DNA of 64,000 nucleotides from Adhaeribacter pallidiroseus (GTDB taxonomy: Bacteria > Bacteroidota > Bacteroidia > Cytophagales > Hymenobacteraceae): assembly GCF_003340495.1 (NCBI RefSeq), contig NZ_QASA01000001.1:806001-870000 (forward strand), read 5' to 3'. Made by a program: the position numbers and the translations under genes. Of this stretch, positions 12,986 to 51,256 are shown piece by piece (the stretch's first letter is position 1; the number at the start of each line of letters is the position of its first letter). The notes under the pieces were generated by a model, which had not been told where the DNA came from, did not search any database, and saw nothing but the letters and a program-made list of their open reading frames with translations.

Positions 12986-13080
12986 TTTCATAGATGAGTT
13001 AAAATTTAAAAAAGTTAGATTGGATGGGCTGCTTAAGGCCAGTTGAGTTAATTTTAGTGTTTTAATAATGGTTCATCTTT

Positions 13081-13683
13081 GGAGCCTTTTCAAGTCTCCG
13101 TGCTCGGGCGCTATCGTGTTTGAACTGGCTGAGTTTGCCTCATGGCCAAACGGGGAGTTCACCCCTCCCCTGCGGGACCTCCCCTAAAAACAGGGGAGGA
13201 GATGCCGCTGTTGCTTCATTCTTTTCTTTCTCGCTCCGCGGCGGTATGTGCCTGCTGCACACCAAAATTTTAGTAGCCCATCCACAGCCAAACTGATGTT
13301 AGTTGTTCTTAGCTACCGTTACTACCATTTTTATACTGGTTAAACATGAATGTTTTAAGTAAATTTTTAAAATTTACTTAGAAAAACAGAGCCAAGAATA
13401 TAAACATTAGTGCTTTCGGTACTAGGTGATAATGTAAATATATTTTCTAAAATCGCGCGTCTAAACTATTTGAGTCAAGAAAGCCGAAGCTAAATGTAGA
13501 TGACATCAGTTTGGCTCAGGAGGGCCTTCTAAGCTTGTGGTGTCGAGGAACGAGGCATTGTGAGGCACGAACAAAACAAGCTTAGACCAGCCCGGAAGAG
13601 CCAAACGGGGCCCGCCGGCCAGGAGGCAAGCATAAAGGTGGCTAGCTAGATAGCACCAGTAAATGGAGACGGGAACCGGCTCC
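13081..13683. repeat. Dispersed structured non-coding element, copy 1
   Basis: This 603-nt stretch is homologous over its length to 28957-29425. Landmarks shared by both copies: outer arm starting GGAGCCTTTTCAAG (13081); AGCCAAACTGATG (13286-13298); TAGCTACC (13310 area); GCCGAAGCTAA; CATCAGTTTGGCT (13504-13516); GGGCCTTCTAAG; AAGCTTAGAC; AGAGCCAAACGGG; CCAGGAGGCAA; and a closing arm GGAGAC...GGCTCC (13665-13683). The outer arms pair with each other and the AGCCAAACTGATG block pairs with CATCAGTTTGGCT. No protein frame is conserved. Relative to copy 2 it carries about 140 extra nt at 13145-13286. It ends 50 bp from the stop of the amidohydrolase gene. Confidence 0.75.
13178..13199. repeat. 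GC-rich stem-loop in the insertion of copy 1
   Basis: CCTCCCCT at 13178-13185 pairs with AGGGGAGG at 13192-13199 around AAAAAC. It is part of the segment absent from the other copy of the dispersed element. Confidence 0.6.
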
Positions 13684-13733: not shown

Positions 13734-14813
13734 TTACTTCATCAGAATCTTTAAAGCATTATCGCGGTAAACTTTGCGAAGCGTATCATTGTCGAGGTTA
13801 AATCCATTCAGGGGCCAATGGTAGCTAAACTGATGAAATTCGTAGAAGTGTTCGTCCGAAGTTTCTAAAATCCGGAAGGTGGTTTCGTACATTTTGGGGC
13901 TGGTGCCCATATCGGTGCCATAAACCAGGCGGTCCTGGTATTTTTTAAAAAAAGTTTGCATGTACCGCGGTATAGGCGCTACTTCTCCGTAACGGGCGGC
14001 GATGTCGGCGTACAGGTTCGGGTATTTATCGAACAAATTGCCCAGAATGCTTAAATCATATTCGGTGTTGGCAAAGTGGCAGGCTACAAAAGTAGTTTTG
14101 GGGTTATCGCGGGCGGCATTTTCCAATGTTTTCACTAATTCGGCGTGGCCAATTAAACCGGGTTTGGTTTTATCAATTTTCCATTGGTAAGCGTTCATTA
14201 AACCGTCGTTGGTGGAGTCCATGGGTTCGTACATCCAGTAAGGTTCGGCCACGTGGATGCTGATAGGCATTTTTAACTCGGCGCATTTTTGCAATAAAGG
14301 TTTCATGCGCGGATCATCCATATGCAGACCATACCCGGGCGTGGGCAATGAGTAAAATTCACCTAAGCCTTTATCGCCTAACTCGCCTACCCCCCGGGCA
14401 CCCGCTTTAAAACAACGCTCCAACTCTTTCACGGCTTTCTTACTCCAGCCCGTTTTGTCTTTGCCCGTAAAATCAAAGCCACACCAAACCTCGAACCGGT
14501 TCCCGTATTTCCGGTAGGCTTTCTGGATCGAATCAAACCGGGCGCCGGTGGAATACGATAAAATAACGGTTTTCTCCACGCCTACCTGGTCCATAGTTTT
14601 TACCCATTCGGCTATTTCGGTGTCGGATTTGGCGTACGGGTGCGAATGCAGATCGATTACAGGATACTTGGCTTTCGGAACCCGGGTAATCGGAATTTTA
14701 TAGATGGACTGCGGCCGGTAATCTTTTAACAGTAATTTGTCCAGGTCCTGGGCCACAGAAGTGCGCCCGATTACAACCAGAAAAGCCAGGAGCAGGGTGG
14801 TATTTTTAATCAT
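13734..14813 (-). CDS. Secreted amidohydrolase (Amidohydro_2 TIM barrel)
   Basis: Exported metal-dependent hydrolase of about 359 aa. ATG 14813 is chosen because it starts a clean signal peptide (MIKNTTLLLAFLVVIG...SVAQ); the frame extends upstream to 14864 without it. The barrel starts with VIDLHSHPY, holding the first two metal-binding His. Further metal or catalytic residues are likely in PISIHVAEPYW, GLIGHAELV, FVACHFANTEYD and VYGTDMG. These suit PF04909 (decarboxylases, lactonases and related enzymes). The substrate cannot be read from sequence. It follows the DUF5009 gene at 200 bp on the same strand. Confidence 0.82.
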   Translation of the reverse strand: MIKNTTLLLAFLVVIGRTSVAQDLDKLLLKDYRPQSIYKIPITRVPKAKYPVIDLHSHPYAKSDTEIAEWVKTMDQVGVEKTVILSYSTGARFDSIQKAYRKYGNRFEVWCGFDFTGKDKTGWSKKAVKELERCFKAGARGVGELGDKGLGEFYSLPTPGYGLHMDDPRMKPLLQKCAELKMPISIHVAEPYWMYEPMDSTNDGLMNAYQWKIDKTKPGLIGHAELVKTLENAARDNPKTTFVACHFANTEYDLSILGNLFDKYPNLYADIAARYGEVAPIPRYMQTFFKKYQDRLVYGTDMGTSPKMYETTFRILETSDEHFYEFHQFSYHWPLNGFNLDNDTLRKVYRDNALKILMK

Positions 14814-15013
14814 AAAACAAGTTTTGACAAGCTGATGAGGTGAACGGATAGGCTTTCGGTACAAAATTTTTTGGTGCGGAGATAAGCGGTTACGACCGGT
14901 TTTTTAAAAATTTAAGGTTAACCGTAGCTAAATTTAAAAATGACGGAAGCAATGCGTTTTGATTACCGGATCCGTATAGAAAGAAGACCCGGCTTTTACT
15001 TGAACGGGCTGCC

Positions 15014-28772: not shown

Positions 28773-29442
28773 AATACTTTCTTTAATTCTCTGTTTTTTA
28801 AATATTTAATGTTTAAACCTATAAAAAATTAAAAAACGCTTGGTTAATAAAACCTTTCGGTTCGTTTTAACGATGTTGCTATTGCATGTTAGTAATATTC
28901 ATTAGTAAATAGTAATTGATATAAAAAGAGTATAGCGTTCATTACCGTTGATCGTTAGAGCCTTTTCAAGCCTCCATGCACTGGCGCTGTCTAGTTGGCA
29001 CGTGCTGAGATTGCTCCTGAGCCAAACTGATGTCAGTTGCTAGTAGCTACCTAGATTACCTTCTTCAGAGTAATAATAACCTAATACGAAACCAACTTTC
29101 ATTAGAATTTACTCAAAAGAAAACAAGACTAGGAAGTTTAATTTTGCCGCTTCTAGTATTGGGGCATATAGTAAATGTAATTTCTAAATTTTCCCGTAAA
29201 ATCTATCTATTGGAGTCAGAAAAGCCGAAGCTAAGAATAAACATCATCAGTTTGGCTGTGAAGGGCCTTCTAAGGTTCCGGTACTGCGCAGCAGTATTCT
29301 GCAGCGGAGTGAGGAAAGGAAGCTTAGACTAGCCCGAAAGAGCCAAACGGGCCCCGCCGGGCAGGAGGCAAACTTGAAGTTAACATGCTAGGTAGCACCT
29401 GAGCCTGGAGACTGGAACAAGCTCCACAGAACTATACTGGCT
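28773..29442. other. 670-bp spacer occupied by dispersed element copy 2
   Basis: Between the GH25 gene and the end of kynU. The part 28957-29425 is the dispersed element; 28773-28956 is AT-rich with nothing recognised. Confidence 0.6.
28957..29425. repeat. Dispersed structured non-coding element, copy 2
   Basis: This 469-nt stretch aligns along its length with 13081-13683, without the roughly 140-nt insertion of that copy. Landmarks: AGAGCCTTTTCAAG at 28957; AGCCAAACTGATG at 29020-29032; TAGCTACC; GCCGAAGCTAA; CATCAGTTTGGCT at 29246-29258; GGGCCTTCTAAG; AAGCTTAGAC; AGAGCCAAACGGG; GCAGGAGGCAA; and GGAGAC...GCTCC at 29407-29425. The distance between the inner paired blocks is nearly equal in the two copies (213 and 205 nt). 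It ends 17 bp from the kynU stop, much as copy 1 abuts another gene end. Confidence 0.75.
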
Positions 29443-48358: not shown

Positions 48359-51256
48359 TTAAGGCAAATACTGACTGGTGCGTAATTCTTCGCGCAGAAA
48401 ACGCGCCGTATAGCCTTTTTTACATTTTGCCACCTCTTCGGGAGTACCCTGGGCCACAATACTGCCGCCTTCGTCGCCGCCTTCCGGGCCAATATCAATA
48501 ATATAATCGGCCACTTTAATCATATCCAAGTTATGTTCAATAAGCAGCACCGTATTGCCTTTGTCCACGAGCTTATGAATAACATCCGATAAATGTTTGA
48601 TGTCTTCGAAATGCAAGCCGGTGGTAGGTTCATCCAGAATGTAAAAGGTTTTACCAGTATCTTTTTTAGCCAGTTCGGTTGCCAATTTTACCCGTTGCGC
48701 TTCGCCGCCCGATAAGGTAGTTGCTTGTTGGCCCAACGTAATGTAACCCAAACCTACTTCGTTTAAAATCTGCACTTTGCGTAAAATCCGGGGTTGGTTA
48801 TCGAAATACTCCACGGCTTTTTCTACGGTCATGTCGAGCACGTCGGTTATGGATTTGCCTTTAAAGCGCACTTCCAGAGTTTCGCGATTGTAGCGTTTGC
48901 CTTTGCAGGTTTCGCAGGGCACGTACACATCCGGCAAAAAATTCATTTCGATGGTGCGCATACCGGCGCCTTCGCAGGTTTCGCAACGACCGCCTTTTAC
49001 GTTAAAGGAAAAACGGCCCGCCGAGTAGCCGCGAATTTTAGCCTCGGGTAATTGCGCAAACAAAGCCCTAATATCCGTGAACATGCCGGTATAGGTAGCC
49101 GGGTTAGAACGCGGCGTGCGCCCAATTGGCGATTGGTCTACTTCAATTACTTTATCAATATGCTCCAAACCCAAGATGCTTTTGTAAGGCAAAGGATCGC
49201 GCTTGGCGTTGAAAAAAAACTGATTTAAAATCGGGAATAACGTATCGTGGATCAACGTGGATTTACCACTGCCCGATACACCCGTCACCGCAATTAATTT
49301 ACCCAACGGAAACTTTACCGATAGATTTTTTAAATTATGACCCGTAGCCCCACGTAATTCCAGGAACTTACCGTTTCCCGGTCGCTTTTCCCGACGTACT
49401 TCAATGTGCTTCTGGCCGCTCAAGTACTGCGAGGTCAAACTGCCGGAATTAAAAATTTCGGCGGGAGAGCCTTCGGCCACAATATGACCCCCGTGAATAC
49501 CGGCGCCCGGGCCAATATCCAGCACGTGGTCGGCGTGCAGAATCATGTCTTTATCGTGCTCCACCACAATTACCGAATTGCCAATATCGCGCAGATTTTT
49601 AAGGGCGTTAATCAGTTTTTCGTTGTCGCGCTGGTGGAGGCCAATGCTGGGTTCATCCATAATGTACAACACGCCCACGAGCTGCGTACCAATTTGGGTA
49701 GCCAACCGGATACGTTGCGATTCGCCGCCGGATAAGGTACGCACGGAGCGGTGCAAGCTTAAATATTCCAGACCCACATCCAATAAAAACTTAATCCTTT
49801 TCCGGATTTCTTTGAGTAGTTCGCGGCCAATTAAATTCTGGCGTTCGGTCAGGCGGTCTTCCAGATTATTAAACCAATCGGCCAGCTTACCAATGTTAAA
49901 CTGCGCTAATTGCCCAATGTGCAAACCGTCCATTTTAAAATGCAACGATTCTTTTTTAAGCCGGTAACCCTGGCATTCGGGGCAAGTGCTGGTTTGGGTG
50001 AACTCATTAATCCAGGTGCGGATAGCATCGGAATCGGAATCCATTTGCTTGCGCAAAAAGTTGATAATGCCTTCAAACTGCGTGATAAAGTTCTGGCCTT
50101 TGGCTTTTACAATAATATCTTCGTCGATGCCGTGCAGCAATTGGTTGAGTACCGGGGCCGGAATATCCTGGATGGCCGTGGAAATGCTCAGCTTGTTTTG
50201 TTTCAGGATGGTTTGAATCTGATTAAAAATCCAGATATCGCGAAACTCCCCGAGCGGGGCAATACCGCCGCGGCTGATGCTTAAGGTTTTGTCCGGAATA
50301 ATCGACTCTTCGGTAATTTCCTGAACAGCGCCCAGGCCGTTGCAAGTGGGGCACGCACCGTACGGCGAGTTAAACGAAAACGTGTTCGGAGCCGGATCGT
50401 CGTAGGCAATACCAGTAGCGGGGTCCATGAGGTGCCGCGAGAAAAAGTGCGATTCGTTGGTATCCGGGTCCAGAATGGTAACGGTACCTTTGCCGTGCGT
50501 CAGTGCATTTTGCACCGAACTCGAAATGCGGTACCGATCCTCGGCGTTTACGATAATTTTATCAATTACAATTTCGATGTCGTGAATTTTGTAGCGGTCT
50601 ACCTGCATTTTGGGTACCAGCTCCATTAAGTCGCCGTCTACCCGCACGCGTACAAAACCCATTTTCCGGATTTGCTCGAACAATTCGCGATAATGCCCTT
50701 TCCGGCCTTTTACCACCGGGGCCAGAATAATCAGCTTTTTCTTATCGAAGTTTTCGAGAATGTGGTTCACAATCTGATCATCGGACTGCCGGATCATGCG
50801 CTCGCCGGTTACGTAGCTAAACGCTTCGGCGGTGCGGGCGTAGAGCAAACGCAGGAAATCGTAGATCTCGGTAATGGTGCCCACCGTGGAGCGCGGGTTG
50901 CGGCTCGTGGTTTTTTGCTCAATGGAAATTACCGGGCTTAAGCCTTCAATCTTATCCACGTTGGGTCGTTCCAGGCCACCCAGAAAGGAGCGCGCGTACG
51001 CCGAAAAAGTTTCCATGTAGCGGCGCTGGCCTTCGGCGTAAATCGTATCGAAAGCCAGCGACGATTTGCCACTGCCGCTAATGCCGGTAAAAACGACCAG
51101 CTTGTTACGCGGAATTTTTAAACTTATATTTTTTAAATTATGCTCCCGGGCACCGTACACTTCAATTAATGGTGCTTCGGTAGTAGTTGTTAGTTCGGGA
51201 GCGGCCGCTGTAGCGGTAGCAGTATCAGTAAGGATTGCTTCTTTCTTTGAGGCCAT
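48359..51256 (-). CDS. uvrA: UvrABC excinuclease subunit A
   Basis: DNA damage-recognition ATPase of 965 aa. It has two ABC modules: Walker [21 protein letters not shown] and later [19 protein letters not shown], signatures [13 protein letters not shown] and [13 protein letters not shown], and Walker [15 protein letters not shown] and [14 protein letters not shown]. Zinc-finger cysteines are in [10 protein letters not shown] and CETCEGAG / [11 protein letters not shown]. An extra N-terminal stretch of about 28 residues is rich in Ala and Thr. It loads UvrB at lesions. A perfect -7 box lies 20 bp upstream. Confidence 0.98.

What the first reader, a model, noticed from the sequence alone, without database searches (positions are those of the whole stretch)
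13081..13683. Large dispersed non-coding element with covarying helices, copy 1
Seen: homology to 28957-29425 along its length, without a conserved protein frame. Three long-range pairings occur in both copies. The outer arms pair with each other: here GGAGCC with GGCTCC and GTCTCC with GGAGAC; in copy 2 the partner bases change at some positions but the helix core is kept. AGCCAAACTGATG pairs with CATCAGTTTGGCT. TCTAAG pairs with CTTAGA, enclosing a hairpin tip that differs completely in sequence but still folds. GCCCG pairs with CGGGC around a conserved GAGCCAAA loop. Inference: a large structured RNA or an RNA-based mobile element. I know of no described family that it matches.
Basis: partly seen in the sequence, partly recalled or inferred. 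Interest (0 to 1): 0.75.

Follow-up and report, generated by a model that had tools for sequence, protein, structure and literature searches.

The report
Spreading structured mRNA repeat in Adhaeribacter
Between genes of Adhaeribacter bacteria and several relatives sits a repeated DNA element, tens of copies per genome, whose sense strand can fold into an intricate shape that evolution keeps although its letters change, which suggests that it works as part of messenger RNA.

Summary
Copies 1 and 2 belong to an interspersed repeat: 46 motif sites in this genome, 0 for the reversed motif. The unit is not the whole palindrome but one arm of about 200 nt with a 125-nt folded core; copy 1 is two arms in inverted orientation. 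The core covaries strongly (64 arms: 97.6% of cells paired, shuffled 86.5, sd 0.4; 206 double-change cells, shuffled 62, sd 7), on the strand read from the centre outward. A covariance model finds it in 50 of 148 relatives, in other genera with re-paired helices. Helices are kept at orthologous sites too: 47 pairs changed on both sides and still paired, 7.0 expected. Between tandem genes it is sense 54 times, antisense 11. Copies 1 and 2 are missing at orthologous gaps of relatives. No Rfam family; no transposase seen beside it. Best reading: a spreading element that acts in cis in messages (3'-UTR, intercistronic), partner unknown; transcription and effect are inferred. New variant of the ERIC/BOX/bcr kind. 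How it moves is unknown; a purely DNA-level element is the main rival.

The parts
13081..13683 (.). Copy 1: two arms in inverted orientation plus an AT-rich spacer, between convergent genes
   Evidence: neighbours
13502..13627 (+). Copy 1, folded core of the right (A-type) arm: P1, P2/P3, two tip hairpins P4 and P5, GGGGCCCGCCGGCC..GAGGC block
   Evidence: model match 142 bits; fold z -3.50 sense, -3.70 antisense
13509..13606 (+). Helix P1 of the right arm, outer limits (GTTTGG 13509-13514 with CCAAAC 13601-13606)
13528..13586 (+). Helix P3 of the right arm, outer limits (TCTAA with TTAGA)
13665..13683 (+). Terminal hairpin of the right arm GGAGAC-N7-GGCTCC
13058..13331 (-). Copy 1, left arm (profile matches 13058-13147 and 13227-13331) with an inserted CCCC/GGGG hairpin between them
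13081..13099 (-). Terminal hairpin of the left arm GGAGCC-N7-GTCTCC
28957..29425 (.). Copy 2: right arm complete, left arm shortened, between convergent genes
29243..29369 (+). Copy 2, folded core of the right arm
   Evidence: model match 122.5 bits; fold z -4.24 sense, -3.12 antisense
28925..29071 (-). Copy 2, remains of the left arm (profile matches 28925-29014 and 29013-29071)

Best explanation
An interspersed, spreading repeat whose unit of about 200 nt (conserved over roughly 400 nt in A. aerolatus and A. rhizoryzae) acts in cis as part of messenger RNA. Shown by computation: a fold with P1, P2/P3 and two tip hairpins kept by compensatory changes; sense orientation to tandem neighbours; places after co-directional genes, between convergent genes, and in one distant relative between genes of one operon. 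Inferred: it is transcribed by read-through from the upstream gene; the folded segment marks or protects the 3' end of the upstream message (stalling 3'-5' exonucleases, or bound or cut by a factor that reads the conserved loop letters) and so sets the relative stability of upstream and downstream messages; it multiplies as a non-autonomous mobile element by an enzyme not found.
For: Covariation. Fold kept at orthologous sites: 12 comparisons, 339 pairs, 47 changed on both sides and paired (7.0 expected if changes fell independently), 19 broken (88.9 expected). Strand: G.U 162 against A.C 18 over 106 arms; 61 against 18 without one conserved G.U pair. Orientation: between tandem genes sense 54, antisense 11, p 6e-8; 50 and 10 with orthologous duplicates removed; upstream gene co-directional in 81 of 100 one-core elements; two-core elements convergent 13, divergent 0, tandem 10. 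G141: 7 of 9 copies start 27-77 nt after the stop of a co-directional gene, among them SusC/SusD, two molybdenum hydroxylase subunits, PSD1/DUF1501 and GH92/sugar transporter pairs. No TAnnTTTG box enriched upstream (6, expected 7.05).
Against: No transcript data. Avoidance of promoter regions and a bias to convergent gaps are also what parasitic repeats show (PMC3049150, passages). Folding energy hardly tells the strands apart (sense z -1.75, antisense -1.47, sense lower in 40 of 64). Downstream genes share no function by eye, so no regulon is visible. Gene conversion between copies could mimic upkeep at orthologous sites. Sigma-70-like matches are somewhat above shuffles in both copies (4 against 1.2, sd 1.0; 3 against 1.3, sd 1.3), so an own promoter is not excluded.
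Confidence: 0.5

Rival explanations
1. A non-autonomous DNA element (MITE- or REP-like): the hairpins are kept because a transposase acting in trans reads them as single-stranded or cruciform DNA; copies in messages are passengers, and the sense bias reflects removal of harmful antisense copies.
For: Dispersed copies, many near-alike in G008, missing at orthologous gaps; inverted arms with terminal hairpins; G.T pairs are also better tolerated than A.C in DNA (established knowledge); the tip loops GAGGNACGA and GACGNAAGGA resemble REP hairpins (motif recalled); convergent gaps are favoured by parasitic repeats (PMC3049150).
Against: Structure stays intact at orthologous sites long after insertion; only 3 Y1 transposase genes in this genome and no arm within 1.5 kb of them; no gene recurs beside 94 loci but at orthologous sites and one family in 7 loci; one-armed units have no inverted ends.
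Confidence: 0.3
2. Each unit is an independent small RNA gene that acts in trans.
For: Conserved branched core with fixed loop letters; a few sigma-70-like matches.
Against: No Bacteroidota-type box enriched upstream; copies follow the orientation of neighbours, which an independent gene need not do; copy 1 has one terminator-like match, on the minus strand, copy 2 none.
Confidence: 0.07
3. A mobile RNA: the element inserts at RNA level (reverse splicing or retro-insertion), which would give sense orientation.
For: Sense bias; RNA-like fold; no DNA transposase found near it.
Against: Reverse transcriptase family absent from G003 and G005, which carry many copies; no intron family match; junctions could not be read.
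Confidence: 0.06
4. A remnant of a known element: orphan guide RNA of an IscB/TnpB system, or a decayed intron or transposon.
For: Multi-copy structured RNAs are known there (HEARO, recalled).
Against: TnpB zinc-ribbon family in 0 of 8 Adhaeribacter genomes with working controls; no Rfam match; copies are not decayed. IscB family 0 of 15, but the controls were silent, so that is open.
Confidence: 0.04

Closest known systems
bcr repeats of the Bacillus cereus group (PMC3446304, passages seen)
   Same: Intergenic repeat families; about half of the copies (84 of 165 and 62 of 155 in two strains) are reported as part of an mRNA in UTRs or within operons; some have conserved RNA structure.
   Different: Unrelated host group; I compared no sequences; here the core is branched and kept across genera.
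BOX, RUP and SPRITE repeats of Streptococcus pneumoniae, and ERIC as summarised there (PMC3049150, passages seen)
   Same: Highly folded interspersed repeats, favoured between convergent genes, co-transcribed; effects on message stability or cleavage reported or proposed, for ERIC in a specific orientation.
   Different: Those are described as MITE-like within one group; no sequence relation was tested; here upkeep by compensatory change at fixed sites was measured.
CGTC-tagged REP repeats (PMC3733652, passages seen)
   Same: Repeats present also in Bacteroidetes and without a linked transposase; the tip loops here look alike (motif letters recalled).
   Different: REPs are 20-40 bp single hairpins with a terminal CGTC; here the unit is about 200 nt and branched.
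HEARO and OMEGA guide RNAs (recalled)
   Same: Structured RNA in many copies per genome.
   Different: No Rfam match, no TnpB in the genus; IscB open.

Membership tests
Any Rfam 15 family | Match at the family's gathering score | tested here: not met
   Window: only a tRNA. Six loci at E up to 5: eight matches, all far below gathering scores.
MITE | Terminal inverted repeats | tested here: inconclusive
   Present in two-armed copies, absent in one-armed units.
MITE | Target site duplication | tested here: inconclusive
   Junctions not readable in empty sites or in near-identical G008 copies.
MITE | AT-rich | tested here: not met
   Cores have GC 0.50-0.69; the spacers are AT-rich by eye.
CGTC-tagged REP | 20-40 bp with a terminal CGTC | tested here: not met
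   Unit about 200 nt; arm consensus has no terminal CGTC.
Co-transcribed structured repeats (ERIC, BOX, bcr kind) | Dispersed, intergenic, many copies, folded | tested here: met
Co-transcribed structured repeats (ERIC, BOX, bcr kind) | Part of transcripts | not testable with these tools
   No RNA data; only position and orientation.
TnpB guide RNA | TnpB gene in the genome | tested here: not met
   0 of 8 genomes of the genus; controls rang in 6 of 14.
IscB guide RNA (HEARO) | IscB gene in the genome | tested here: inconclusive
   0 of 15 genomes, but no control rang.
Group II intron | Intron model match, or a reverse transcriptase in genomes with copies | tested here: not met
   No model match; RVT_1 not found in G003 and G005, which carry many copies.

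The most novel reading that the evidence does not exclude
A class of ornate RNA that spreads through genomes of a bacterial family and is kept as a working cis element of messages, read by a dedicated, still unknown partner (protein, RNA or ligand) that recognises the branched core; possibly it inserts at the RNA level, which would explain the sense orientation.
Probability: 0.2. Interest if true: 0.85.

Novelty: new variant of a known kind. Interest (0 to 1): 0.62.

Why it matters
Interspersed repeats in bacteria are mostly treated as parasitic hairpins. Here one branched fold is held by many compensatory changes, also at fixed sites between species, in four genera of one family, and in sense orientation to genes. 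If it works in messages, it is a natural case of a spreading repeat that became a general mRNA part, with tens of copies to test in one strain and a covariance model to find the rest.

Tried and rejected
Rfam, gathering and permissive: nothing. PLSDB plasmids: no match. Viral contigs, three patterns: 0. A gene recurring beside the elements in 94 loci: only orthologous sites and one family in 7 loci that I read by eye as Gfo/Idh oxidoreductases; a second cluster of 6 is the element's own chance frames. A common function of downstream genes: none by eye in 27 loci listed. Own Bacteroidota-type promoter: no enrichment. Y1 transposase, TnpB, reverse transcriptase as partners: not supported; IscB open. 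Homogenisation of the two outer flanks within one element, suggested by L015 and L019: not general, 752 of 5000 permutations reach the observed mean. Exact junctions from empty sites and from near-identical G008 copies: not readable; G008 copies have further repeats on both sides. An attC-like or recombinase-site reading of the palindromic ends: considered and dropped, as one-armed units lack the pair. A larger autonomous element with arms 7.4 kb apart in G003 (L061): ordinary-looking ORFs between, and one arm is an orthologous one-armed site.

Limits: copy numbers in relatives are lower bounds (scored candidates capped per genome). Genes are longest open frames, not annotation. Alignments A3 and A4 were fitted to the model and lean to the structure; A1 was aligned by sequence alone, but its structure was derived from it. 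One search calls an element one-core if model R1 finds one core, so some have a degenerate second arm; 9 elements with incomplete context were left out. The null is a simple random placement of changes. The arm types do not separate C arms with and without the inserted hairpin.

Full report
What is there. The window lies in a 6.43-Mb genome (G000). Its genus is Adhaeribacter: congeners G005 and G001 share contig lengths with A. rhizoryzae DK36 and A. aerolatus NBRC 106133, whose contigs carry the element's motif. The stretch 13081-13683 gives 110 match rows in its own genome, with 40 of 166 candidates scored. Many places show two matches in opposite orientation to the same right-hand 200 bases, so the palindrome is two inverted copies of one unit. 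The motif GCCAAACGRGGCCYGCCGGCCANGAGGC with up to 3 mismatches occurs 46 times (22 forward, 24 reverse); the reversed motif does not occur.

Anatomy. Read from the centre outward, an arm has a conserved GNAGCTA, then P1 (GTTTGG with CCAAAC), P2 and P3, a branch with two short hairpins P4 and P5, the block GGGGCCCGCCGGCC..GAGGC, a variable stretch, TAGCACC, and a terminal hairpin GGAGNC-N7-GNCTCC followed by AAAG. Of 25 two-core elements that I listed, 18 pair one arm with GGGCCTTCTAAG (A) and one with GCACCTGCTAG (C); 2 are C/C, 3 A/A, 2 unlabelled. In A. aerolatus and A. rhizoryzae the unit is mostly one-armed and conserved over roughly 400 nt, with a 5' domain of hairpins that resembles the inserted hairpin of the left arm of copy 1 (by eye).

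Is the fold real? RNAalifold on 64 arms aligned by sequence gives 29 pairs, 18 with changes on both sides. Against shuffles: 97.6% of cells paired (86.5, sd 0.4), 206 double-change cells (62.3, sd 7.0), none of 500 shuffles as high on any of five measures; partners slid by 1 to 3 columns give 28.6-49.1% paired and at most 14 such cells. With other genera added (77 sequences, fitted to the model) 24 of 29 pairs change on both sides, 350 cells against 97.4. The window cores fold at z -3.50 and -4.24. At orthologous sites (12 comparisons, 339 pairs) 47 pairs changed on both sides and stayed paired (7.0 expected if changes fell independently), 12 changed on one side and stayed paired (17.3), 19 broke (88.9) (with one more comparison, gives 49, 12 and 21). 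Gene conversion between copies could add to this.

Which strand? G.U cells outnumber A.C cells 162 to 18 over 106 arms; one pair is G.U in 101 of 106, and without it the count is 61 to 18. So the fold belongs to the strand read outward. Energy alone hardly tells: mean z -1.75 sense and -1.47 antisense, and copy 1 folds about as well antisense (-3.70).

Where does it sit? Both window copies lie between convergent genes: a LacI-type regulator and an amidohydrolase; a GH25 lysozyme and a kynureninase. Over the fetched loci, two-core elements lie between convergent genes 13 times, divergent 0, tandem 10 (9, 0 and 7 without orthologous duplicates); the window's own gaps are 10 convergent and 10 divergent (p 0.002). 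One-core elements between tandem genes are sense 54, antisense 11 (p 6e-8); 27 lie between convergent and 8 between divergent genes. In G141, of another family of the order, 9 matches were found; 7 start 27-77 nt after the stop of a co-directional gene, four of them between genes of related function. In G099, G252 and G377, of a further family, a single simpler copy stands before similar genes; the one in G099 is GH109/Gfo-Idh by Pfam. These distant matches are weak (best E 3.8e-5 and 2.7e-8) but look alike in P1 and P2 by eye.

Does it spread? Copy 1 is missing from the orthologous gap of G007 (about 180 bp there, 760 here); in G003 and G004 the two genes are not neighbours. Copy 2 is missing from G007, G003 and G004 (113, 47 and 75 bp there, 700-740 here). 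No arm is found in these stretches. Other sites are shared between species, two of them between genera (L116/L127, L118/L132). G008 has 65 model matches, many nearly alike. The core is found in 50 of 148 relatives, four genera of one family, and in 31 of 390 genomes of the order (strict filters). As far as tested no transposase, nuclease or reverse transcriptase goes with it (IscB open).

What it most likely is. Places, strand and upkeep of the fold fit best with a repeat that is read as part of messages. Known repeats of this general kind are ERIC, BOX and the bcr families, for which effects on message stability or processing are reported or proposed (PMC3049150, PMC3446304; passages). This family shares the way of life; a sequence relation was not tested, and it differs by its branched, deeply kept core. 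Transcription, effect, partner and means of spreading are inferred or unknown. The strongest rival is a DNA-level mobile element whose hairpins are a transposase substrate; the tip loops resemble REP hairpins (letters recalled; PMC3733652, passages).

Literature. (listings, partly capped) show no description of this family. The library lacks most subscription papers, so absence there is weak evidence.

Noticed in passing
L012 1754-1805, L061 9338-9389, L018 1198, L026 1801, L033 1823, L065 426; weak match window 48625-48641: A second repeat, a palindrome of about 57 bp (CATTCAGGAGGAA..TTCCTCCTGAATG), beside or inside elements.
   Followed up: partly
L010 1859-1877, L029 2174-2192, L173 1283-1301: A third repeat, GACACAAGTATYAAGACAA, in a spacer and flanks; not in the window.
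   Followed up: partly
G000:C1 2677729, 4154061, 5830043, 5849056: Four reverse-transcriptase genes with the same score (141.1 bits, 458-aa frames), probably copies of one element.
   Followed up: no
window 13734-14864 and L062 1192-2557: Related open frames (the window one an amidohydrolase by Pfam) stand beside the repeat at both sites.
   Followed up: no
L003 and L039; L002 and L032: At the same site in two species the arm labels differ (C/A against A/A; C/A against unlabelled/A), as if arms were exchanged or the element turned round.
   Followed up: no
G008 loci L228-L267: In the 49 G008 copies aligned, a hairpin like AGATCCCTCCTATCGTCGGGATGAC and a module AAAACGNTATCCTTT..AAAAACT, seen twice, follow many of them.
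   Followed up: no
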